This document shows, piece after piece, positions 8,425 to 44,777 of a stretch of 64,000 bases of DNA (the stretch's first letter is position 1; the number at the start of each line of letters is the position of its first letter). The notes beneath the pieces are model-generated. The model worked only from the letters and a program-made list of their open reading frames with translations, made no database searches and was not told the DNA's origin. The position numbers were made by a program, and so were the translations under genes. Origin of the DNA: Solirubrobacterales bacterium (GTDB taxonomy: Bacteria; Actinomycetota; Thermoleophilia; Solirubrobacterales; 70-9); NCBI GenBank assembly GCA_025936755.1, contig JAICSS010000010.1, positions 1 through 64,000 of the forward strand, given 5' to 3'.

Positions 8425-9864
8425 TCAGTTGCGCACGTACTCGCAGCGCGAGGCCCGGTTGCGGCCGCGGCCGCCGATGCAGCGGTCCTCGCCGCCGCGG
8501 CCGTCGAGCCGGTCGGAGCCGCCGCGGCCGAGCAGGACGTTGGCGCCGCCGTCGCCGATCAGGACGTCGGGCCCGGGCGAGCCCTCGATCTTCTCGGTCC
8601 CGGCGGCGATCCGCCCCGGCGTGCAGCCGCCCACCTCGGGGTCGACGACCGTGCCGCCGATCTTCGCCCGCACGTAGGTGCCGTCGTTGCGGACGCGGGC
8701 GAAGGAGGCGCTGTCGTTGTTGCCGCGACCGCCGGAGAAGAGGTCGCCCTCGCAGGGCTGGCCGCCGATCATCAGGTCGTCGCCGGCGCCGCCGATCATC
8801 GTCGCCGCGCCGCTGCTATGGCGGGGATGGAGGATGTCGACACCGAAGAGGGCGTCGTTTCCGCCGCCGCCTTCGAGCCGGTCGGGGTCGCCGTCGTCGC
8901 CGGCGTAGATCGTGTCGCCGCCGGGCCCGCCGCGCAGCCAGTCGCTGCCGGCGCCGCCGTCGATCGTCACCCCGACCCCCCGCGGCAGCGAGCGTTCGAT
9001 CGCGATCCGGTCGTCGCCGGCGCCGAGCGAGACGAGGATCGAGCCGACGCGGGCGCCGCCGACCTGGAGCGAGGGGCCGGAGCCGCCGGAGACGAGGACG
9101 TTGCCGTCCCGGAGACCGACGGCGAGGTCGTCGGGGCCGGCGCTGCCGGAGATCGCGAGGCTGTTCGAGCCGCAGGGGCTGACCGCCGGCGCGGTGTCGA
9201 AGCATTCGCTCCCCGGAGCGCCGATCACCTCCTCGATCCCGACCAGGCGCTCGTTTTCGGCGCCTCTGACGCGGCCGTCTTGGAGGTCGACTTCGATCGG
9301 CCCGCCGGCGCTGCGGTAGGAGGCGGTGTCGTGCGCGCCCGGCCCGCCGTCGATGCGGTCGCGGCCGATCCCGCCGGCGATCTCGTCGAAGCTCCCGCGC
9401 CCCCCGCGCACCGTGTCGTCCCCCATGCCGCCGTCGACGTCGTCGCGGGCGCCGAGACCGCCGCTGACGACGTCGTTGCCGCTCTCGCCGCGGACCCGGT
9501 CGCGACCGGCCCCACCGCGCACTTCGTCGGAGCCGCGACCGCCGAGGACCAGGTCCGCTCCCTTGTTGCCGTGGAGGCTGTCCTTGCCGCGGCCGCCGTC
9601 GATCCGGTCGCGGCCGGCGCCGCCGCAGACCGTGTCGTCGCCGCGGCCGCCGTAGATCAGGTTCGGGCCGCCGGCGGCGAGGATCACGTCGGGCCCGCGG
9701 GTGCCGTGGATGCGGCGGTCGTTGGAGACGATCGTCGCCCTCTTGCCGCCGCATTCGGGCCGTCCAGCGTCGGGTGAGCCGGTCAGCGCGAAGTAGAGGG
9801 CGCCGGCCAGCAAGATCGCCAGGCCGGCGAAGGCGATCCGACGCAAACCGGCTGCTCCCGCCAC
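8425..9864 (-). CDS. RTX-type calcium-binding nonapeptide repeat protein
   Basis: 479 residues. A membrane/signal helix occupies about residues 8-28. About 55-165 carry many consecutive GGxGxDxLx-like nonapeptides (GGRGDDTVCGGAGRDRIDGG and neighbours). A middle region without repeats (about 170-300) is followed by a second repeat block and a final GRGGSDRLDGRGGEDRCIGG. These repeats bind calcium and form parallel beta-rolls in secreted proteins. No type I secretion genes or enzymatic domain are visible. The start GTG 9864 has GGGAGG 7 nt upstream. Confidence 0.88.
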   Translation of the reverse strand: MAGAAGLRRIAFAGLAILLAGALYFALTGSPDAGRPECGGKRATIVSNDRRIHGTRGPDVILAAGGPNLIYGGRGDDTVCGGAGRDRIDGGRGKDSLHGNKGADLVLGGRGSDEVRGGAGRDRVRGESGNDVVSGGLGARDDVDGGMGDDTVRGGRGSFDEIAGGIGRDRIDGGPGAHDTASYRSAGGPIEVDLQDGRVRGAENERLVGIEEVIGAPGSECFDTAPAVSPCGSNSLAISGSAGPDDLAVGLRDGNVLVSGGSGPSLQVGGARVGSILVSLGAGDDRIAIERSLPRGVGVTIDGGAGSDWLRGGPGGDTIYAGDDGDPDRLEGGGGNDALFGVDILHPRHSSGAATMIGGAGDDLMIGGQPCEGDLFSGGRGNNDSASFARVRNDGTYVRAKIGGTVVDPEVGGCTPGRIAAGTEKIEGSPGPDVLIGDGGANVLLGRGGSDRLDGRGGEDRCIGGRGRNRASRCEYVRN

Positions 9865-10003
9865 GATCGATCCTCCCTTCCGCCTGCGTGGCCCCTTTCC
9901 CGTGCCTCACAGCTACCCGATCGGAGCCATCGCGCAACGCCGCTGATATGAATCGGTTCCCGCATCCAGTCCAGTCGCCCAGAACCTTTACGGGAGGGAT
10001 CCG

Positions 10004-12157
10004 ATGACCCGCCGCCTCGCCAGCCTCGCCGACTTCTCCTACCGCCGCCGCGGGACCATGGTCCTGCTCTGGATCGTCTCCGCGATCGCGATCATCGGCC
10101 TCGGCTCCGCGCTGGCGGGCGAGTACGAAGCCGACTACAACACCCCCGGCTCGGACTCCAAGGCCGCCAGCGACCTCACCGAACGCGAGTTCGGCGGCTA
10201 CTCCGGCCAGGAAATCTACGTCGTCTGGAAGGACCCCGCGGGCGCCGCGAGCGGGCCGGCTCGCCGGCGGATGGACGCCTTCTTCGAACAGGCCGAAGCG
10301 ATCGAGAACGTCGAGAAACGGGACGCGATCCGGGTCTCCAGCGACGGCACGATCGCGACGACGACCCTGCCGCTCACCATTCCCGGCTGGCAGGTGAAGA
10401 AGGAGCAGGGCGAAGAACTGATCGACGCCGCCGAAGCCAACAGCGGCGGCGGCCTGAAGATCAAGCTCGGCGGCGAACCGATCTACACCGCCCAGGAACA
10501 GACCAGCCCCGAGTTCTTCGGCTTCCTCGGCGCGGCGATCGTGCTGCTGATCGCCTTCGGCTCCCTGGTCGCCGCCGGCCTGCCGCTGGTCATCGCGCTC
10601 GTCGGGCTCGGCATCTCCTCCGGCGGCCTGATCGTCCTCCTCGCTAACGTGATCGACGTCCCCAACTGGACCACCGCCGTCTCCGGCCTGATCGGGATCG
10701 GCGTCGGGATCGACTACGCGCTGCTGGTCCTGACCCGCTTCCGCTCCGCCCTCAAAGCGGGCAAGGACCGCCACGACGCGGTCGTCGAGGCGGTGACCAC
10801 CGCCGGCCGCAGCGTGATCATCGCCGGCTGCACCGTCGTCATCGCCGTCCTCGGGCTTTTCCTCACCGGCCTTCCCTACATGTACGGGGTGGCGATCTCG
10901 GCCTCGTTCGCCGTCCTGGTGGTGATGCTGGCGTCGATCACCCTGCTGCCGTCGCTGCTTGCCTACCTGGGGCCGAACGTCGACCGGCTGCGGATCCCGG
11001 TCCTGGGCCGCAGCCTCGACGCCAAGGAGGGCGGCGAATCCCCGGCCGCCCGCTGGAGCCACACCGTGCAGCGGCATCCCTGGACCGCGGCGATCGTCGC
11101 GGTGGCGATCCTGCTCGCCCTCGCCGCCCCCGCCCTGGGAATGCGGCTCGGCTTCCCCGACGCCGGCAACGACCAGCCGGACACGATGACCCGGCAGGCC
11201 TACGACCTGATCAGCGAGGGCTTCGGGCCCGGCGCCAACGGGCCGCTGGTGGTCGCCGCCGAACTGCCCGGCCCCGGCGCGAAGGCCACGATCGAGGGTC
11301 TCGCGACGAAGCTGCGACAGGAGGAAGGTGTCGCCTACGTGCCGCCGCCCCGCTTCAGCGACGACGGCGCCGCGGCGATCCTCACCGTCATCCCCACCAC
11401 CTCCCCGCAGGACGAGGCGACCTCCGAACTGGTCGACCGCCTGCGCGGCACGGTGATCCCCGAAGCGGTCGGCGCCTCCGGGGTCACCGTCCTGGTCGGC
11501 GGCGTCAACGCCGCGCTCGAGGACCAGAGCACCTACATCACCGGCCGCATGCCGTGGTTCATCGCCGGCGTCGTCGGGCTCTCCTTCCTCCTGCTCCTGG
11601 TCGCCTTCCACTCGCCCTTCATCTCCTTGAAGGCGGGGATCATGAACCTGCTCTCCGTCAGCGCCGCCTACGGCGTCATGACCCTGGTCGCCCAGGGAGG
11701 CGCCGTCGGCCAGCTGATCGGGATCGACCACGAAGTCCCGATCGCCCCGTTCATGCCGGTGATGATGTTCGCGATCCTCTTCGGCCTCTCGATGGACTAC
11801 GAGGTCTTCCTGATCTCGCGGATCCGCGAGGAGTACCTGCGGGACGGCGACACCCGGCGCGCGGTCGCCGACGGGCTGGCGAAGACGGCCCGGGTGATCA
11901 CCGCGGCGGCGGCGATCATGGTCGTCGTCTTCCTCGCCTTCGTCGCCTCCCCCGAAGTCTTCCTCAAGCTCTTCGGGGTCGGCCTCGCCGCGGCGATCTT
12001 CCTCGACGCGACGCTGGTGCGGATGGTCCTGGTGCCGGCGGTGATGCAGCTGCTCGGCGAGCGCAACTGGTGGATCCCCGACTGGCTGGAGCGGATCCTC
12101 CCGCGGATCGAGGTCGAGCGGGGCGCGCCGGGAGTGGCGACCGAAGGCGGGTCCTGA
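10004..12157 (+). CDS. MMPL/RND family transporter
   Basis: 717 residues with the duplicated RND layout: one N-terminal helix, a soluble loop (about 45-165), five or six helices (about 170-330), a second helix and loop (about 360-510), then six more helices. The signature GIDYALLVLTRFR is in half one and SMDYEVFLISRIREEY in half two; the GxDY aspartates carry the proton path. Actinobacterial MMPL proteins export lipids or hydrophobic compounds. GGGAGG lies just before the ATG. No regulator is adjacent. Confidence 0.93.
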   Translation: MTRRLASLADFSYRRRGTMVLLWIVSAIAIIGLGSALAGEYEADYNTPGSDSKAASDLTEREFGGYSGQEIYVVWKDPAGAASGPARRRMDAFFEQAEAIENVEKRDAIRVSSDGTIATTTLPLTIPGWQVKKEQGEELIDAAEANSGGGLKIKLGGEPIYTAQEQTSPEFFGFLGAAIVLLIAFGSLVAAGLPLVIALVGLGISSGGLIVLLANVIDVPNWTTAVSGLIGIGVGIDYALLVLTRFRSALKAGKDRHDAVVEAVTTAGRSVIIAGCTVVIAVLGLFLTGLPYMYGVAISASFAVLVVMLASITLLPSLLAYLGPNVDRLRIPVLGRSLDAKEGGESPAARWSHTVQRHPWTAAIVAVAILLALAAPALGMRLGFPDAGNDQPDTMTRQAYDLISEGFGPGANGPLVVAAELPGPGAKATIEGLATKLRQEEGVAYVPPPRFSDDGAAAILTVIPTTSPQDEATSELVDRLRGTVIPEAVGASGVTVLVGGVNAALEDQSTYITGRMPWFIAGVVGLSFLLLLVAFHSPFISLKAGIMNLLSVSAAYGVMTLVAQGGAVGQLIGIDHEVPIAPFMPVMMFAILFGLSMDYEVFLISRIREEYLRDGDTRRAVADGLAKTARVITAAAAIMVVVFLAFVASPEVFLKLFGVGLAAAIFLDATLVRMVLVPAVMQLLGERNWWIPDWLERILPRIEVERGAPGVATEGGS

Positions 12158-35813: not shown

Positions 35814-36848
35814 ATGACGCAGCCGACCTTTACCCCAGCGGGGTGTGGCAGAAATCGGATCCGCGGGTTGTCGGTGGTGGCGCTCGCCGCCCTACTGGTC
35901 GGCACGGTCCTCCTCGCCGCCACCGCCTCGGCCGTCGGCCCCTACCCCGGCCTCGGCTCGTGCCATGTCTCCCCGGACCCACCCGCGTCGCTCTCGCCGC
36001 GCGCGCCGTCCCTCCCCACCGAGGCCGCCTGGAACCAGGACGTCTCGAAGGCGCCCCGCGACCCGCGCTCGAACTCCTACATCTCCTACATCGACTCGCA
36101 CGGCGGCGATCGCCTCCATCCCGACTTCGGCTCCCCGCGTCCCTACGGGTTCCCCTACTCCGTGGTCGGCGCCGGCCAGCCGAAGTTGCCGATCCACTAC
36201 ACCGCCTACGGCGAGGAGAGCGACCCCGGCCCGTTCCCGGTCCCGGCCGGAGCGCCGGTCGAGGGCGGCAACCGCAGCGACGGCGACCGCCACGTCCTCG
36301 TCGTCGACCGCTCCGCCTGCCGGCTCTACGAGCTCTACCGCGCCTTCTACGTCGCCAAGCCGCGCCCGCACTGGAACGCCGACTCGGGGACGAGCTGGGA
36401 CCTCAGCTCCGCCGCCCGCCGTCCCGACGGCTGGACCTCCGCCGACGCCGCCGGGCTGCCGATCTTCCCCGGGCTCGTCCGCTACGACGAGGTCGCCGCC
36501 GGCCACCTCGACCACGCGATCCGCGTCACCTTCGAGAGCACCCGCGAGGCCTGGGTCCACCCCGCCTCCCACTGCGCCGGCGACACCTCCGACCCGAATG
36601 CCCCGCCGATGGGCCTGCGCCTGCGACTCAAGGCCGGCTACGGGCTCGGCCGCTTCCGCGGCGCCGCGAGGACGATCGCCCTGGCGATGAAGCGCTACGG
36701 GCTGATCGTCGCCGACAACGGCTCCAACTGGTTCTTCTCCGGCAGCAGCGACCGCCGCTGGGACGACGAGGACCTGAACCAGCTGAAGCGGATCCCCGGC
36801 AGCGCCTTCGAGGTGGTCAAAAGCGCGGCAACGCCGCATTCATGCTGA
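35814..36848 (+). CDS. Secreted protein of unknown function, 344 residues
   Basis: A signal/anchor segment (SVVALAALLVGTVLLAATASA) leads into a secreted domain with recurrent aromatic, Pro and His residues: AAWNQDVSK, GGDRLHPDFGS, RHVLVVDRSACRLYELY, HLDHAIRVTF, WVHPASHCAG, GLRLRLKAGY, NGSNWFFSG. The order looks like a conserved actinobacterial secreted family, but I cannot name it or assign a catalytic set. The best start is unclear because no Shine-Dalgarno precedes ATG 35814. Confidence 0.7.
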   Translation: MTQPTFTPAGCGRNRIRGLSVVALAALLVGTVLLAATASAVGPYPGLGSCHVSPDPPASLSPRAPSLPTEAAWNQDVSKAPRDPRSNSYISYIDSHGGDRLHPDFGSPRPYGFPYSVVGAGQPKLPIHYTAYGEESDPGPFPVPAGAPVEGGNRSDGDRHVLVVDRSACRLYELYRAFYVAKPRPHWNADSGTSWDLSSAARRPDGWTSADAAGLPIFPGLVRYDEVAAGHLDHAIRVTFESTREAWVHPASHCAGDTSDPNAPPMGLRLRLKAGYGLGRFRGAARTIALAMKRYGLIVADNGSNWFFSGSSDRRWDDEDLNQLKRIPGSAFEVVKSAATPHSC

Positions 36849-36909
36849 TTTGCAGGCATTGGATTGGGTACTTGAGCCAATAGGGACACACCCCTGAGGA
36901 GAGAGGAAA

Positions 36910-37515
36910 ATGGCTCAGACCAAACCCAAATCGAGTTCGAAACCGAAAACGAAATCGAAACCGAAATCCAGCAAATCGTCGGCTTCGAAAACCGCGAAAC
37001 CGGCCTCGAAATCGAAATCCAAATCGGCGTCGAAACCCAAAGCGGCGAAATCGAAAGCGAAACCGAGCAAAAGCAAAGCGAGCAAGCCGCGCAGCTCGAG
37101 CAACGGCGCCAGCGCCAAAAGCAGCTCGAACGGCTCGTCGAGCAAACACTCGAACGTCGAGGCGGTAAAAAACGCGGTCGGCGGCGCCGGTCAGACCGTA
37201 GGCAAAGTCGCGAGCAAAGCGAAAGTGCCGCTCGTCGCCGGCGGGGCGGCGATCGCCGGGGCCGCGGGCGGGATGGCTCTCGCCGCCTCGAAGAAAGGCC
37301 GCAAGAGCGGTCTCAGCAAGGCCATGAGCCGCAGGCCCAAAGTCAAGGTCAGCGGTAAAGACATGGCAAAGGCAGCCAAAGAGGTAGGGAACTTCAGCGC
37401 GCAGGTTGGCGAGCTCGCCACCGAGCTCCAGCGCGCTCGAGAGTCGGCGGACGGGAACGGCAAGCACCGCTCGCCGGTAGAGGTCGTTCTACAGGGGCTC
37501 ACCGCGAGGCGCTAG
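36910..37515 (+). CDS. Histone H1-like basic-tailed protein with Gly-zipper helix
   Basis: 201 residues. Residues 1-82 are nearly only Lys, Ser, Ala and Pro, written with repeated AAA-TCG/TCC codons. Residues 108-130 (VPLVAGGAAIAGAAGGMALAA) form a glycine-zipper membrane helix, then a basic patch, then an amphipathic helix (MAKAAKEVGNFSAQVGELATELQ). A GAGGAGAGAGGA site precedes the ATG. It shares the MAQ-TK opening and basic tail with the protein at 37892-39151. It may tether DNA, polyanions or granules to a membrane; this is inference. No named family recognised. Confidence 0.75.
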   Translation: MAQTKPKSSSKPKTKSKPKSSKSSASKTAKPASKSKSKSASKPKAAKSKAKPSKSKASKPRSSSNGASAKSSSNGSSSKHSNVEAVKNAVGGAGQTVGKVASKAKVPLVAGGAAIAGAAGGMALAASKKGRKSGLSKAMSRRPKVKVSGKDMAKAAKEVGNFSAQVGELATELQRARESADGNGKHRSPVEVVLQGLTARR

Positions 37516-37539
37516 CGCCGGGCTGGCCCTGAGGACATT

Positions 37540-37577
37540 GGCTGCGACCGCGCGTACGGGACGCGCGGTCGGCAGCC
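37540..37577. terminator. Strong hairpin between convergent genes
   Basis: An 11-bp perfect stem (CGACCGCGCGT with ACGCGCGGTCG, 5-nt loop) is extended by five more pairs across a one-base bulge (GGCTG/CAGCC). It fills the gap between the + gene ending at 37515 and the - gene ending at 37578, so it probably terminates both. Confidence 0.65.
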
Positions 37578-37895
37578 TCACTCCGGTCCCGCTCCCTCCG
37601 CTTCGCGTCGTCGCCGCTGCCCCACTTCGCGGGCCACGTCCTCGGCATCGAAGTCCTCGCCTTCGGCCGGGTGGACGATCCACTGCGCCACCTTCCAGTC
37701 GACCTTGACGTCGCGATAGGCGACCCCGGCCTCCGGCTCCTCTGGGATGTTCTCCCGCTCGACCTCCGCGTCGGTTTCGTGGCCCGGCTCGCCGTAGTAG
37801 GCGACCTTGCGCTTCTTCGGGACCTTCCCGAACGTCACCTCCCTGGCCTTGACCGAGGTGGAGAAGTCGAGGTCGGGACGACGGCCGCCGCTCAC
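37578..37895 (-). CDS. Conserved-looking small protein of basic-tail cluster
   Basis: 105 residues, soluble. RRPDLDFSTSVKAREVTF, KVAYYGEPGHETDAEVERENIPEE and AGVAYRDVKVDWKVAQWI form a beta-rich core, with an acidic/basic helical tail (EDVAREVGQRRRREAEG). Its GTG start overlaps the TGA of the repeat protein (GTGA), so the two are translated together. The family is not recognised; the tight coupling suggests that they act together. Confidence 0.75.
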   Translation of the reverse strand: MSGGRRPDLDFSTSVKAREVTFGKVPKKRKVAYYGEPGHETDAEVERENIPEEPEAGVAYRDVKVDWKVAQWIVHPAEGEDFDAEDVAREVGQRRRREAEGAGPE

Positions 37896-39151
37896 GCGGC
37901 AGCCGCCTTCTCGACGTCATGGACGGTGACGCGGCCTTCGGCGCCGGTGCCCTCGACCTCGTCGACGTCGACCCCGTGCTCCTCGGCCTTGCGCAACGCC
38001 GCCTCGGTGGCGTTGTGCTTGGCGGCCCGCCGCTGGCGGCGTTTTTCGCCCAGCTCCATCGCCTTGTGAGTGGCGGCGAGGCCGAGGTCTTTGGCCTCGT
38101 CGGCTGCGGCTGCGCCGATCTCTTTGGCGACGAGCTTGGCGATCTGTTTGGCGATGCCGCCGCCGGCTCCGCCTTCGCCTCCATTGCCGCCGCCGTTGCC
38201 GCCGTTTCCGCCTCCACCGCCGCCCGGGCCCGCCAGTCCGCCGAGCGCACCAGCGCCCTGGCCGAGCCCGCCGACCGCCTGCCCGGCCCCTTCGCCGAGC
38301 CCGCCGACGGCCTGGCCCGCGCCTTCGCCGACCTGCCCGACGGCTTTGTTGGCGCCTTCGCCGACCTCGCCTACCGCTTTCCCGGCGCCGCCGCCCACGT
38401 CTTCCACCGCCCCGCCGGCTCCTTCGCCCACGTCTTCCACGGCGCCGCCGGCTCCTTTGCCGACGTCTTTGACGGCGCCCCCGGCGCCCTCGCCGACGTC
38501 TTCGACCGCGCTGCCGGCGCCTTCGCCGATCTGCCCGACCGCTTTATTCGCCCCTTCGCCGACTTCGCCGACCGCTTTCCCGGCGCCTTCGGTGACCGGT
38601 TCGAGCGAGTGCGCAATCGTCTGCAGCACGTCCGGGTTGCGGTCGAGCGTGGTCAGGACCCGGTCGATGATCGCGGTCACGTGGTCGAGGCGTGCCCGCA
38701 TCAGCATCTGAGCTTCGACCCCTTTGATGTTTAGTTCGACCTTCCCCAGCTCGACGTGGACGCCGACGCTCAACTTCACCAGGTCGAGGACCTCGGCGTG
38801 GAGGGAGACCCGCGCCATGAGGTCGTCGAGCTCGAAGTGGATCTCGTCGACCTTGACCACAGGGACGTCGACGATGACGTCGGGCTCGTCGGTATCGCTG
38901 ATTTCGCCCGGGTCGATGACCGTGTAGTCCTCGTACATCTGCTCCGGCCGGGTCTTGTCGGAACCCTGGTTGCGGATCCCGCTCCGCCGCTGCCCGTCAC
39001 CCGAGCCATTTTCGTCCTTCTTCTGGGTCGGGCTTTTGTTGCGCCCGCTCCCCGCCGTGCTCTGGTGGACTTCTTTCCGGGGGCTTTTGCTCCTGGCTTT
39101 TTTGGACTGCGCCCGTTTCCGACTGTTTTTGGATTTGGTCTGCTGGGCCAT
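37892..39151 (-). CDS. Basic-tailed protein with ten 11-residue repeats and E3-binding-like C-terminus
   Basis: 419 residues. 1-68: Lys/Arg/Ser tail. 91-175: an alternating beta-like domain (VIVDVPVVKVDEIHFELDDL ... HVELGKVELNIKGVEAQ) then helix. 187-306: ten consecutive 11-mers of the form GEGAGxAVxxV plus a partial one. 308-332: Gly/Asn-rich. 333-378: helix with basic end. 382-417: KAEEHGVDVDEVEGTGAEGR, then VTVHDVEKA, matching the peripheral-subunit (E3)-binding domain of lipoyl E2 proteins. ATG 39151 has AGGAG upstream. No enzyme motif. A scaffold binding membranes or DNA is my inference. Confidence 0.8.
   Translation of the reverse strand: MAQQTKSKNSRKRAQSKKARSKSPRKEVHQSTAGSGRNKSPTQKKDENGSGDGQRRSGIRNQGSDKTRPEQMYEDYTVIDPGEISDTDEPDVIVDVPVVKVDEIHFELDDLMARVSLHAEVLDLVKLSVGVHVELGKVELNIKGVEAQMLMRARLDHVTAIIDRVLTTLDRNPDVLQTIAHSLEPVTEGAGKAVGEVGEGANKAVGQIGEGAGSAVEDVGEGAGGAVKDVGKGAGGAVEDVGEGAGGAVEDVGGGAGKAVGEVGEGANKAVGQVGEGAGQAVGGLGEGAGQAVGGLGQGAGALGGLAGPGGGGGGNGGNGGGNGGEGGAGGGIAKQIAKLVAKEIGAAAADEAKDLGLAATHKAMELGEKRRQRRAAKHNATEAALRKAEEHGVDVDEVEGTGAEGRVTVHDVEKAAAA
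38234..38593 (-). repeat. Tandem 33-bp coding repeats
   Basis: Ten and a fraction tandem units of 33 bp inside the gene above encode 11-residue repeats (consensus GEGAGxAVxxV). Units differ at several bases, so the array is old or under protein-level selection. Flanks and lack of spacer diversity exclude a CRISPR array. Confidence 0.88.
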
Positions 39152-39240
39152 CCCACACCTCTCCTCGCTCACGCGTTTCCTCTTCCCTTAAGGAACTTTT
39201 TCCCGTTGCGAGAAGCGGCAAACGCAGCTGTAGCCGGAAG

Positions 39241-39393
39241 TCAGTGGCTGTGGCGGCGGCCGCCGGAGACCAGGCGCCAGGCCCGGCTGAGGACGTAGAG
39301 GATCGCGAAGGAGATCGCGAGCCCGATCGCGCCGAGCAGGAGGAGGAAGAGCACGAAGGCGAAAATCGCCACCGGGATCAGGAGCAGTTTCAC
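39241..39393 (-). CDS. Small single-span membrane protein, 50 residues
   Basis: A GTG-started ORF whose product is one long hydrophobic stretch (LLLIPVAIFAFVLFLLLLGA and on to AILYVLSRAW) with a basic C-terminus ending GGRRHSH. It lies 89 nt upstream of the repeat-protein gene on the same strand. Only a weak AGG precedes the start. Its strongly membrane-like composition argues for a real gene; function unknown. Confidence 0.5.
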   Translation of the reverse strand: MKLLLIPVAIFAFVLFLLLLGAIGLAISFAILYVLSRAWRLVSGGRRHSH

Positions 39394-39410: not shown

Positions 39411-40130
39411 ATGGAGATGCTTCAGACGGCGGCAGTCCTGCAGGTGGTGGTGGCGCTGGCCGGCGCCAGCGGCGGCAACCGGGCGGTGGCGACGATCGGC
39501 GACGGCCTCGCCCTGATGGAAGCCCGCCAGCGCGTCGAACGGACCGACTCCGCGGAACCGCGCCCGGCGGCGAAGAAGGCGAGCCTGCCGAGCGCCGCAG
39601 AAATCGCCGCCGATCCCTCCAAGCTGCCGCCCGCCTCGGCCGGCAGCAACGGGACCCACGTGCCCCACACCTCCTCGCTGCGCCGCGACCAGATCTTCGC
39701 CCACCGCCGCGGCGGCTCGGGCTCGAGCGCGATCCTCCTCACCGGCGTCGCCCTCGCCCCGACCGACGCGCCGGCGGCGGTCGCGGGGGCGATCGACGCC
39801 GCCAACACGATCGTCGGCCGCCCCTACGTCTGGGGCGGCGGCCACGCCTCCTTCTACAGCAACTCCTACGACTGCTCCGGCGCCGTCAGCTTCGCCCTCT
39901 TCGGCGGCGGCCTGATCCCGCGCCCGCTCACCTCCGGCGACCTCATGCACTGGGGTGCGCCCGGGCCCGGCAGGTGGATCACCGTCTACGCCAACCCCGG
40001 CCACGCCTTCGTCGAGATCGCCGGCCTGCGCTTCGACACGGTCGGCGACGAACAGGGGACGGGACCGCGCTGGCACCTCGCCGCGGTCTCGACCGCCGGC
40101 TTCGTCGCCCGGCACCCGCCGGGCCTCTGA
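39411..40130 (+). CDS. NlpC/P60-family cell-wall peptidase
   Basis: 239 residues. The C-terminal domain (about 115-235) has AANTIVGRPYVWGGGH, the catalytic Cys in YDCSGAVSFAL and the His in NPGHAFVEIAGLRFDT. The N-terminal 110 residues are a low-complexity Ala/Ser/Pro region after a hydrophobic start that could be a signal or anchor. These enzymes cut D-Glu-DAP or related bonds in peptidoglycan. The start codon is uncertain. Confidence 0.87.
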   Translation: MEMLQTAAVLQVVVALAGASGGNRAVATIGDGLALMEARQRVERTDSAEPRPAAKKASLPSAAEIAADPSKLPPASAGSNGTHVPHTSSLRRDQIFAHRRGGSGSSAILLTGVALAPTDAPAAVAGAIDAANTIVGRPYVWGGGHASFYSNSYDCSGAVSFALFGGGLIPRPLTSGDLMHWGAPGPGRWITVYANPGHAFVEIAGLRFDTVGDEQGTGPRWHLAAVSTAGFVARHPPGL

Positions 40131-41371: not shown

Positions 41372-41597
41372 GCGGGGGATCCGGGGCAAGCGATGGACAC
41401 GCCGTTATCTTCGGCGATCCGGCGGTCGGCAGTAGCGCCGCAACGCCGCCGCCGGACCGGGCGCGCTCCTAGCCGCCGCGGGCCATATTCGCCGGGGTCC
41501 GGAAGCGAGGGCGCCCTCCTAAAGGAGATTGGACAGATTGTCGATGACGAGGTCATCCGGAGCGTCCCAGCGCTCGCCCACAGGAAGGAGATCGCCC

Positions 41598-42068
41598 ATG
41601 CATCGCATCACCCGTAGACGAGCGCTCGCCGCGCTCGCGGGTCTCGCCACCGTCGCCGTCGCCGCCGCGGCCTACGCGTACTTCACGAGCACCGGCTCCG
41701 GCACGGCCACCGCCAAAGTCGGCACCAGCTCCGCCGTCACCCTGAAAGGGACGGTTTCCGGCAACCTCTACCCGGGGGCCTCCTCGCAGGTCTCCTTCAC
41801 GGTCGACAACCCGTCGACCGGCGCGCAGCGGGTCGGGACGATCACCCTGACCGGGATCACGGTCGACGCCGGCCACTCGACCTGCAGCACGACGATCAGC
41901 GGCGGCAACCCCGACTTCTCGATGCCGGCCGTGGCCGTCAACGCCACCTTCCCCTCGGGCAACGGGCAGGCGGTGACGCCGAAAGGCACGCTGACGATGA
42001 ACGACACGGGCGTCAGCCAGAACGCCTGCCAGGGCGCGGAACTCACCCTCGCTCTCTCCAGCAACTAG
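41598..42068 (+). CDS. SipW-type secreted beta-sandwich protein, first of operon
   Basis: 156 residues. Twin Arg/basic start, membrane helix (LAALAGLATVAVAAAAYAYF), then FTSTGSGTATAKVG, the kind of segment cleaved in SipW/TasA-like signal peptides. The mature domain has YPGASSQVSFTVDNPSTGAQ, TLTGITVDAGHSTCSTTI and the closing DTGVSQNACQGAELTLALSSN (in part), with two Cys likely paired. AGGAAGGAG precedes the ATG. It may be a surface or fibre subunit. Confidence 0.72.
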   Translation: MHRITRRRALAALAGLATVAVAAAAYAYFTSTGSGTATAKVGTSSAVTLKGTVSGNLYPGASSQVSFTVDNPSTGAQRVGTITLTGITVDAGHSTCSTTISGGNPDFSMPAVAVNATFPSGNGQAVTPKGTLTMNDTGVSQNACQGAELTLALSSN

Positions 42069-42087: not shown

Positions 42088-42918
42088 ATGCCGGGGCGGC
42101 GCGAGATGGGGCGCTTCCGCGCGACCAGGGCACTCGTTGCCCTGGTCGCCGCCGTCGCCTGCCTCGGCGGCGTCGCCTACGCGGCCACCAGGCCCGACCA
42201 CGGTCGCCCGCAGGGCAAGGGGGGCGGCAACCCAGCCCGCGGGCGCGGGCAGCAGCCGCCGCGTCCCAGCTTGATCGAAGTCCCACCGGCGATCGCCGTC
42301 GGCGGCGGCTGGCAGTTCCGCTTCCACGTCGTGCCCAGGCCGCAGCCGCAGGGCCAGGCGCCTCCGGCACAGCCGGCTCCGGCGCCCGACAGGTGGCGCC
42401 AGTTCCAGTGCCGGCTCGACGGCGGCGAGTGGAGGTCCTGCTCCTCCCCGCGCCTCCTCGGCGCCCTCTCGCCGAGCGACCACTCCTTCGCGGTCCGGGC
42501 GCTCAACCGCCGCGGCCTGCCGGGGCCCGCGGCTCACTACCGCTGGTCTCAGCTCGAGCCGAAGGAGTTCACGATCGACCCCCAGACGGACTCGCTCGAG
42601 GAGCTGATGCCGGGCGCGCCGCCGCAGCAGCTGCCGGTCCGGATCGGCAACCCGAACCCGGTGCCGATCGAAGTCACCGGCCTTACCGTCTCGGTCGCTC
42701 CGGAGGCCGCGGGGTGCGCCGGGGATTCCAACTTCGCGGTCACTCCCGCGGGCCTCGGCCCGGCGGCGCCGCTCGCGGTCCCGGCGGGCGGCTCGGCGGA
42801 GCTGCCCACCGCGACCGTGACCGCGCCGGCCCTGGCGCTGCGCGAACTCCCGGTCGACCAGAACGCCTGCCAGGGGACGTCGGTCCGCCTCGAGTTCAGC
42901 GGTGAGGCGCGGGGATGA
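42088..42918 (+). CDS. Secreted protein sharing the QNACQG domain, second of operon
   Basis: 276 residues (a start at 42106 is also possible). Signal helix (ALVALVAAVACLGGVAYAA), a Pro/Gln-rich linker, a middle domain with two Cys pairs (QFQCRLDGGEWRSCSSP) and a C-terminal domain (PVRIGNPNPVPIEVTGLTV ... GCAGDSNFAVTP ... VDQNACQGTSVRLEF) that parallels the mature part of the preceding gene product. It overlaps the next ATG (ATGA). It is probably exported and displayed with its neighbours. Confidence 0.75.
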   Translation: MPGRREMGRFRATRALVALVAAVACLGGVAYAATRPDHGRPQGKGGGNPARGRGQQPPRPSLIEVPPAIAVGGGWQFRFHVVPRPQPQGQAPPAQPAPAPDRWRQFQCRLDGGEWRSCSSPRLLGALSPSDHSFAVRALNRRGLPGPAAHYRWSQLEPKEFTIDPQTDSLEELMPGAPPQQLPVRIGNPNPVPIEVTGLTVSVAPEAAGCAGDSNFAVTPAGLGPAAPLAVPAGGSAELPTATVTAPALALRELPVDQNACQGTSVRLEFSGEARG

Positions 42919-44777
42919 GGCGCGCCCGCTTCAGCGGCGTCGCCGGCTGCCTCTTCGGAGCGGTCTTGCTCGCCCTGGTCGGCAGCGCCGTCGCCTTCTT
43001 CACCGCCAACGGCACCGGCAACGCGACCGCGGCGGTCTCGAAGCTGACGGCGCCGACGATCGCAGCCGCCACCCCCGGGGCGGGCGGCACGGTCACCCTC
43101 AGCTGGAGCGCGATGACGCCGCCGGGGGAAGGAACCGTCACCTACTACGTGACCCGCGACGGCGGCAAACCGGGCGGCAACTGTCCCAGCTCGACGGCGC
43201 CGACGTCGGTCACGACCTGCAGCGACGGCGCCGTCCCGATCGGCGAACACACCTACGAAGTGACCGCGCTGTGGCGCTCCTGGCAGGCGACCAGCACCGG
43301 CAAAACGGCGAAAGTCACCGCGGGCGCGGCGGTCGCGTTCACGGTCTCGGCGAGCGCCACCGCCATCACCGCCGGCGGCTCGAGCAACCTGACGATCAGC
43401 GCCAAGGACGAAGCGGGCAACGTCGTCCCCACCTACACCGGCTCCCACTCGCTCACCTTCTCCGGCGCCGGCGCTTCCCCCGGCGGGACCAAGGCCACCG
43501 TCGCCGACAGCTCCGGCACCGCGATCGAATTCGGCGCGGCGACGGCGATCAACTTCAGCAGCGGCGTCGCCACCGTCGCGTCGAGCAAAAACGGGGTGCT
43601 GAAGCTCTACGGGGCGGGTTCGGCGAGCATCGTCGCGACCGAAGGCACGATCACCACCCCGAGCCCGCCGACGATCACGGTCGCCGCCGCCGCGGCCGGC
43701 AAATTCGTCCTCTCGGCCGCCTCGGCGACGCCGACCGCGGGCGCGATCGACGAACTGACCGCCACCGCCCAGGACACCTACGGCAACACCGCCACGTCCT
43801 ACACCGGCTCCCACAGCCTCGTCTTCTCCGGCGCCGGCGCCAGCCCCGGCGGCAACACCCCCACCGTCAGCGACTCGACCGGCGCCGGCGTCGCCTTCGG
43901 CGCCCCCACCTCGTTGAGCTTCAGCGCCGGCGTCGCCAAAGCCGCCGAATCCAAAAACGGCGCGATGAAACTCTACAAGAGCGGCTCGACCAGCGTCCAG
44001 GCCACCGAGGGGACGATCACGACGCCGACCGCGGTGACGGTGACGGTGGCGCCGGCCACGGCGGCGAAACTAGTCCTCACCTCCTCGACCCCGACCCCGG
44101 TGGCCGCGACCGGGTTCAACCTCACCACCACCGCCCAGGACGCCTACGGCAACACCGCGACGGGCTACACCGGCTCGAAGAACATCACCTTCGCGGGCGC
44201 CGCCGCCAGCCCCAGCGGCGCGCTGCCGACGGTCGTCAACAGCGCCGGCAGCGCAATCAACTTCGGTTCGGCGACCGCACTCAGCTTCACCGCCGGCGTC
44301 GCCACCCCGGCCTCCTCGAAAAACGGCTTCGCGAAACTGAACAAGGCCGGGGCGGCGGCGCTCACCGCCGGCGACGGCAGCATCTCCACCGCCGCCTCCC
44401 TCGCCCTCACCGTCTCCGTCGGCACCGCCTCCCGCCTCGGCCTCGTCGAAACGACCAGCAGCGCCGGCACGATCGGCTCCCCCTGCCTGTTCACCTGCAC
44501 GATCACGACCTTGGGCAACTCCGGCACCGTCAAATCCAAGGTCGCGATCACCGACAGCGTCGGCAACACCGTCTCCAACGTCGGCGCCGCCAAGACGGTC
44601 ACCATCACCTCCACCGGCGGCGCCATCGCCGGCTCCCCCCTGGCCGTCCCCGAATCCGGCCCCTCCGTCACCGCCAGCCAGTTCACCTACACCGCCCCCG
44701 CCACCGGCGCCTTCACCAACACCATCACCGCCGCCTCGACCGCCTACACGAGCGCGACGGCGACGGTCAGTAGATAG
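42915..44777 (+). CDS. Large secreted Ig-like repeat protein, third of operon
   Basis: 620 residues. Signal helix and AFFTANGTGNATAAVSK again look SipW-type. A fibronectin III-like domain follows (about 45-138), then three ~110-residue repeats starting near residues 138, 245 and 350, each with TAxDxxGNxxxxYTGSxxLxFxGAxASPxG and FxxGVAxxxxSKNGxxKL, and a final C-terminal domain with a CLFTC pair. Repeats are also visible in the DNA. It looks like a cell-surface stalk or adhesin. Confidence 0.82.
   Translation: MRRARFSGVAGCLFGAVLLALVGSAVAFFTANGTGNATAAVSKLTAPTIAAATPGAGGTVTLSWSAMTPPGEGTVTYYVTRDGGKPGGNCPSSTAPTSVTTCSDGAVPIGEHTYEVTALWRSWQATSTGKTAKVTAGAAVAFTVSASATAITAGGSSNLTISAKDEAGNVVPTYTGSHSLTFSGAGASPGGTKATVADSSGTAIEFGAATAINFSSGVATVASSKNGVLKLYGAGSASIVATEGTITTPSPPTITVAAAAAGKFVLSAASATPTAGAIDELTATAQDTYGNTATSYTGSHSLVFSGAGASPGGNTPTVSDSTGAGVAFGAPTSLSFSAGVAKAAESKNGAMKLYKSGSTSVQATEGTITTPTAVTVTVAPATAAKLVLTSSTPTPVAATGFNLTTTAQDAYGNTATGYTGSKNITFAGAAASPSGALPTVVNSAGSAINFGSATALSFTAGVATPASSKNGFAKLNKAGAAALTAGDGSISTAASLALTVSVGTASRLGLVETTSSAGTIGSPCLFTCTITTLGNSGTVKSKVAITDSVGNTVSNVGAAKTVTITSTGGAIAGSPLAVPESGPSVTASQFTYTAPATGAFTNTITAASTAYTSATATVSR

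What the first reader, a model, noticed from the sequence alone, without database searches (positions are those of the whole stretch)
36910..39393. Cluster of paired basic-tailed proteins with 11-residue repeats: possible new architecture
Two proteins (36910-37515 and 37892-39151) open with MAQ-TK and long Lys/Ser tails, like histone H1. One then has a Gly-zipper helix, the other a beta-like domain, ten 11-mers and an E3-binding-like end. A 105-residue protein is coupled to the latter by GTGA, and a 50-residue membrane protein lies upstream. A system tethering DNA or granules to membranes is inferred; phasins with H1-like tails are one analogy.
Basis: partly seen in the sequence, partly recalled or inferred. 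Interest (0 to 1): 0.78.

Follow-up and report, generated by a model that had tools for sequence, protein, structure and literature searches.

The report
Undescribed granule-coat-like protein family
This soil bacterium carries a small gene set whose main protein joins a positively charged tail, a domain absent from the public family libraries, ten fat-particle-coat-like repeats and a docking domain; relatives suggest that it coats storage granules or other internal surfaces, but no experiment has tested this.

Summary
The sequence features are real. P0002 (37892-39151, minus strand) has a Lys/Arg-rich N-terminus, a domain (residues ~88-186) not in Pfam or NCBIfam, exactly ten 11-mers and a Pfam E3_binding end. 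It overlaps P0003 by GTGA. P0001 has a Lys/Ser tail and a Gly-zipper. The 50-residue membrane ORF was not found in any related locus and is dropped.

The core domain lies in 40 loci of named genomes (mostly Actinomycetota) and on Deinococcus plasmids. P0003 relatives accompany it in 30 loci, often coupled. In Rubrobacter, which makes PHA, the core protein carries 13-35 repeats that match Pfam Apolipoprotein above its cut-off; the match vanishes in permuted controls. Its cluster also encodes E3BD proteins, a ParA ATPase and a ParA-neighbour protein sharing the core protein's tail. In a deltaproteobacterium the core is fused to a domain whose paralogues sit between phaR and class III phaC/phaE.

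Best reading (0.42): an inclusion- or membrane-surface coat with nucleoid or positioning adaptors, analogous to MLDS, PhaM or perilipin. Against it: the repeats are acidic, storage-lipid synthases do not always co-occur, the core model is poor, and P0001 relatives also lie beside gas-vesicle and stress genes.

The parts
36910..37515 (+). P0001: Lys/Ser tail (res 1-80) + Gly-zipper segment (res ~105-127, nt ~37222-37290) + amphipathic C-term ending SPVEVVLQGLTARR
   Evidence: relatives in the class E 8e-38 to 6e-4; upstream of core genes in the G196 and G385 regions
36847..36871 (+). GATT-N15-GGGTAC, SigB-like promoter match upstream of P0001; kept in L016
   Evidence: consensus match only
37892..39151 (-). 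P0002: basic tail, new core domain, ten 11-mers, Gly-rich linker, E3BD-like end
38594..38890 (-). core domain of P0002 (res ~88-186)
   Evidence: (match 38594-38935), alignment A4, 40 loci, no Pfam family over cut-off
38261..38590 (-). ten 11-residue repeats, consensus EGAGxAVxDVG (res 188-297)
37910..38002 (-). E3_binding domain (res 384-414)
   Evidence: Pfam PF02817, 34.7 bits; PDB E2 peripheral-subunit-binding domains, best E 7e-5
39200..39223 (-). GTTT-N15-GGGAA, weak promoter-like match upstream of P0002; kept in L016
37578..37895 (-). P0003: small beta protein, GTGA-coupled to P0002
   Evidence: relatives in 30 fetched loci; AlphaFold pLDDT 78.5

Best explanation
P0002 is most likely a cytoplasmic coat or scaffold protein of a hydrophobic intracellular surface: a neutral-lipid inclusion in this organism, a PHA granule in Rubrobacter and in the Phox-21 deltaproteobacterium. 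Inferred mechanism: (1) the 11-mers are disordered in water and fold into a 3-11 amphipathic helix on the surface, as in apolipoproteins and perilipins; (2) the core domain together with the small beta protein P0003 forms the assembly unit; (3) the E3BD-like end and, in Rubrobacter, the shared C-terminal tail are docking modules linking the proteins of the cluster; (4) in this lineage the Lys/Ser tails of P0001 and P0002 bind the nucleoid by charge, as MLDS does with its Lys-rich end, while in some Rubrobacter a dedicated ParA ATPase and a neighbouring protein that shares the tail position the body. Shown by sequence: domain content, amphipathic register, conserved pair, shared tail, phasin-like fusion. 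Inferred: surface binding, co-assembly, DNA binding, positioning.
For: 11/3 amphipathic register in P0002 (0.17% of permutations reach it). Rubrobacter relatives match Pfam Apolipoprotein above the curated cut-off (95.7 and 93.3 bits, cut-off 90); a 440-aa repeat stretch gives Apolipoprotein E 6e-23 and a sub-threshold Phasin_2 E 1e-4, and three register-permuted and one shuffled version give neither. Phox-21 (L050): the core is fused to a 101-aa N-terminal domain whose three paralogues (E 9e-8 to 9e-6) lie between PhaR and class III PhaC/PhaE. Rubrobacter is reported to store PHA at about 50% of dry mass (PMC8146576). Core and P0003 conserved together in 30 fetched loci. ParA-like ATPase clustered in 8 Rubrobacter loci; tail of the ParA-neighbour protein shared with the giant core proteins, BLAST E 1e-12 to 1e-22. 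Window genome has two WS/DGAT genes. Precedent for a lipid-droplet protein with a Lys-rich DNA-binding end: MLDS (PMC5504291).
Against: The P0002 repeats are net -11 over 113 residues and those of most relatives are negative too; in Plin4 a shift of the repeat charge to negative abolished droplet targeting (PMC5889406). P0002 itself does not match the Apolipoprotein or phasin models. Of 17 core-bearing genomes tested, 4 have PhaC_N, 8 have WS/DGAT and 5 have neither; the window genome has no PhaC_N. The N-terminus is basic only in some relatives. The Deinococcus copies seem to have a signal peptide (read by eye), which does not fit a cytoplasmic granule. P0001 relatives lie beside gas-vesicle and stress genes.
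Confidence: 0.42

Rival explanations
1. General-stress or desiccation proteins: LEA-like hydrophilins whose 11-mers fold on drying and protect membranes or proteins, with no dedicated organelle.
For: CsbD-like genes in 8 loci (assigned by eye), a PspA/IM30 family gene (Pfam E 1.6e-12) in 8 loci, SRPBCC genes and DUF892/CsbD-like genes near relatives; core found in Rubrobacter, Deinococcus, sporulating actinomycetes and soil MAGs; SigB-like promoter matches upstream of P0001 and of 4 of 35 core genes against 15 of 744 others; acidic, Gly-rich repeats.
Against: No LEA family match in Pfam; a conserved core, a coupled partner gene, docking domains, a tail shared with a ParA-neighbour protein and the phasin-like fusion argue for a specific assembly. 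Three of the four promoter matches come from close relatives.
Confidence: 0.25
2. Nucleoid-associated proteins: P0001 and P0002 are H1-like DNA compactors, the E3BD-like fold being used for DNA binding as in Lsr2 (recalled).
For: Tails of net +24 and +14; the E3BD is Lsr2-like in fold (own knowledge); an HU-like gene near the core gene of L018 (by eye).
Against: Rubrobacter core relatives have acidic N-termini and several others are near neutral; the repeats are acidic; the best solved relatives of the E3BD are E2 enzymes.
Confidence: 0.12
3. Gas-vesicle-linked accessory proteins that keep a role after loss of the vesicle genes.
For: P0001-like gene directly downstream of gvp genes in G248; 9 of 19 core-bearing genomes have GvpA-family genes.
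Against: Window genome and the Rubrobacter genomes tested lack Gas_vesicle matches; in the gvp regions examined (L109, L110) no core gene was seen.
Confidence: 0.08

Closest known systems
MLDS of Rhodococcus jostii (lipid-droplet protein that binds DNA; PMC5504291)
   Same: lipid-surface-type helix plus a Lys-rich end; actinobacterial
   Different: no core domain, P0003 or E3BD that I know of; its Lys-rich PAKKA end is C-terminal, here the basic tail is N-terminal; homology not tested
Perilipin 4 / apolipoprotein 11-mer helices (PF01442; PMC5889406)
   Same: long runs of 11-mers, weakly hydrophobic 3-11 helix; Rubrobacter relatives match PF01442 over its cut-off
   Different: P0002 itself does not match; repeats acidic, Gly-rich; bacterial; likely convergent
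Phasins and PhaM (PHA granule proteins; PhaM ties granules to the nucleoid, PMC3556143)
   Same: core fused to a phasin-like domain in Phox-21; granule-to-nucleoid logic
   Different: P0002 matches no phasin model and the window genome has no PhaC_N
E3-binding (peripheral subunit-binding) domain of 2-oxoacid dehydrogenase E2
   Same: Pfam PF02817 over cut-off at the C-terminus
   Different: no lipoyl or catalytic domain; the position of the key Arg (R135 in B. stearothermophilus, recalled) is Leu

Membership tests
Phasin (PF05597 / PF09361) | match to a phasin model over its cut-off | tested here: not met
   P0002 no match; Rubrobacter repeat stretch Phasin_2 22.7 bits against 24.9
Phasin (PF05597 / PF09361) | PHA synthase in the same genome | tested here: not met
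   no PhaC_N in G000, control Caulobacter rang; met in Rubrobacter and Phox-21
Apolipoprotein/perilipin-type 11-mer helix | tandem 11-mers with an 11/3 amphipathic register | tested here: met
Apolipoprotein/perilipin-type 11-mer helix | PF01442 match over cut-off | tested here: not met
   P0002 no match; met by Rubrobacter relatives L025 and L031
Apolipoprotein/perilipin-type 11-mer helix | binds a lipid surface | not testable with these tools
   needs purified protein
2-oxoacid dehydrogenase E2 | E3-binding domain | tested here: met
2-oxoacid dehydrogenase E2 | lipoyl and acyltransferase domains | tested here: not met
   no such Pfam match in P0002
2-oxoacid dehydrogenase E2 | Arg at the R135 position | tested here: not met
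   Leu in P0002; Arg in 28 of 46 distinct domains of the family; numbering recalled
Gas vesicle system | GvpA-family gene in the genome | tested here: not met
   no PF00741 match in G000; same search rang in 9 of 19 other genomes
MLDS | Lys-rich end that binds DNA | tested here: inconclusive
   Lys-rich end present by composition, N-terminal here; DNA binding not testable
LEA group 3 | LEA family match | tested here: not met
   no LEA match for P0002 or four relatives

The most novel reading that the evidence does not exclude
A previously undescribed protein-coated bacterial inclusion, built on the core domain and its P0003 partner and in some Rubrobacter positioned by its own ParA ATPase through a shared tail domain, patchily spread over Actinomycetota, Deinococcota and a deltaproteobacterium.
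Probability: 0.25. Interest if true: 0.8.

Novelty: new variant of a known kind. Interest (0 to 1): 0.55.

Why it matters
The core and P0003 families are absent from Pfam and NCBIfam although they occur together in many Actinomycetota. If the granule reading holds, they supply candidate surface proteins for Rubrobacter PHA granules and show how a bacterial inclusion could be linked to the nucleoid through histone-like tails in one lineage and a ParA ATPase in another. The giant Rubrobacter proteins would be bacterial counterparts of perilipin 4, which makes a general rule for amphipathic coats testable.

Tried and rejected
Gas vesicle origin: expected from recalled neighbours; no GvpA in the own genome, core genes not seen in the gvp regions read. 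Fold comparison: core model poor (pLDDT 58.8, pTM 0.25); P0003 model fair (78.5); no PDB match with E below 1 for either, so no fold is claimed. Sequence search of solved structures with the core profile: nothing convincing. Phages: no match. One Pfam query (protein 9) carried a mistyped N-terminus; it gave no hit and is not used. P0001 against the L028 upstream protein by BLASTP alone is not significant (E 0.72); the genome search gave E 6e-4 for that region. Gene lists come from a simple GC-based caller: starts are approximate and some repeat genes were called on the wrong strand. The 50-residue membrane ORF was dropped.

Full report
What is there. The window lies in a 2.4 Mb genome of 45 contigs. 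P0001 (36910-37515 +) and the pair P0002/P0003 (39151 to 37578, minus strand) converge. All sequence facts of the finding were confirmed: tails, ten 11-mers, E3_binding end over the Pfam cut-off, GTGA overlap. The 50-residue ORF is not conserved.

The core domain. Residues ~88-186 of P0002 match no Pfam or NCBIfam model over its cut-off. A search of named genomes gave 40 loci: Rubrobacter, Solirubrobacterales, Streptomyces, Nocardiopsis, Nonomuraea, Actinomadura, Micromonospora and relatives, and one deltaproteobacterium; the plasmid collection added two Deinococcus plasmids. In the class of the window the domain is patchy: 6 of 249 genomes, 2 of the 4 from the same genus.

The partner. P0003 relatives lie near the core gene in 30 fetched loci besides the window, directly downstream in the actinomycete and Solirubrobacterales-type loci, with start and stop overlapping or within about 30 nt in several (L018, L028, L040, L041, L042, L043, L058; coordinates). 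In Rubrobacter one E3BD gene comes between. P0003 is modelled as three long strands and a helix at pLDDT 78.5, without a PDB match.

The repeats. The hydrophobic pattern of the P0002 11-mers peaks at the third harmonic, 98.2 degrees, and 0.17% of position permutations reach that value. Giant Rubrobacter relatives (complete proteins of about 600-926 aa; L020 and L021 run off their contigs) match Pfam Apolipoprotein over the cut-off in the two tested; the match disappears when the 11-mer positions are permuted or the stretch shuffled. This supports an amphipathic 3-11 helix. The charge is a problem: -11 in P0002, and Plin4 loses droplet binding when made negative (PMC5889406).

The Rubrobacter cluster. 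Searches show, in varying completeness: a tyrosine-recombinase-like gene (assigned by eye), the giant core gene, a gene with up to four E3BDs, P0003, helical proteins ending in E3BD, a CsbD-like gene, a ParA-type ATPase (AAA_31, 6.5e-35) with a neighbour whose N-terminal half looks like a ribbon-helix-helix protein (by eye), and a second core gene ending in E3BD. The last ~80 residues of the giant core proteins are shared with that ParA neighbour (E 1e-12 to 1e-22) and more weakly with the Deinococcus core proteins (E about 4e-8). Sharing of modules suggests one assembly; this is inference.

The phasin-like fusion. In Phox-21 (L050) the core follows a 101-aa helical domain with three paralogues in that genome. 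They lie between a PhaR (TIGR01848, just below its cut-off; Pfam PHB_acc_N 3e-26) and a class III PhaC (440 bits, over cut-off) with PhaE. No phasin model recognises them, so phasin is assigned by position and appearance.

Lipid synthases. Own genome: no PhaC_N (control rang), two WS/DGAT. Of 17 core-bearing genomes, 4 PhaC, 8 WS/DGAT, 5 neither. So a storage-lipid synthase seen by these two models is not a requirement; other routes to triacylglycerol were not searched.

P0001. Relatives lie upstream of core genes in two other genomes (G196, G385; weak E 3e-4 and 6e-4) and beside the core in the same-genus genome G347 (E 8e-38), and also without the core in G220, G370, G248 and at two more places in G196. 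In G248 it follows gvp genes confirmed by Pfam; in G196 one copy is next to an SRPBCC gene, a family also found beside core genes in L018 and L028. P0001 is therefore a looser companion than P0003.

Promoters. A GATT-N15-GGGTAC match precedes P0001 and a GTTT-N15-GGGAA match precedes P0002, both kept in L016. Among core genes 4 of 35 have the Streptomyces SigB-type pattern (consensus recalled) against 15 of 744 other genes; three of the four are close relatives, so this is a lead only.

Conclusion. The pair core + P0003 is a real undescribed conserved module. The surface-coat reading fits most facts but rests on Rubrobacter and Phox-21 more than on the window itself; the stress-protein reading is the main rival.

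Noticed in passing
L011, L020, L022, L025, L027, L029-L032, L034, L049, upstream of the giant core gene: A XerC/D-like tyrosine recombinase gene lies near the giant core gene in 11 Rubrobacter loci (assigned by eye).
   Followed up: no
L013:6308-7721 and seven further Rubrobacter loci (ParA): ParA-type ATPase with a neighbour protein whose C-terminal ~80 residues are shared with the core proteins.
   Followed up: partly
L057 and L059, ~9650-11330: Deinococcus plasmids carry a core protein with an apparent signal peptide and, convergent to it, a 168-aa hypothetical gene at the same place in both.
   Followed up: no
L011, L020, L025, L029, L030, L032, L034, L049: PspA/IM30 family gene upstream of the giant core gene.
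   Followed up: no
window 39411-40130 +: NlpC/P60-like gene, divergent from P0002 and conserved in L016; weak family matches only.
   Followed up: no
window 41529-42068 and 42915-44777 +: Secreted-looking protein (YAYFTSTGSG) followed by a 620-aa protein with repeated Ig-like stretches; read from the translation only.
   Followed up: no
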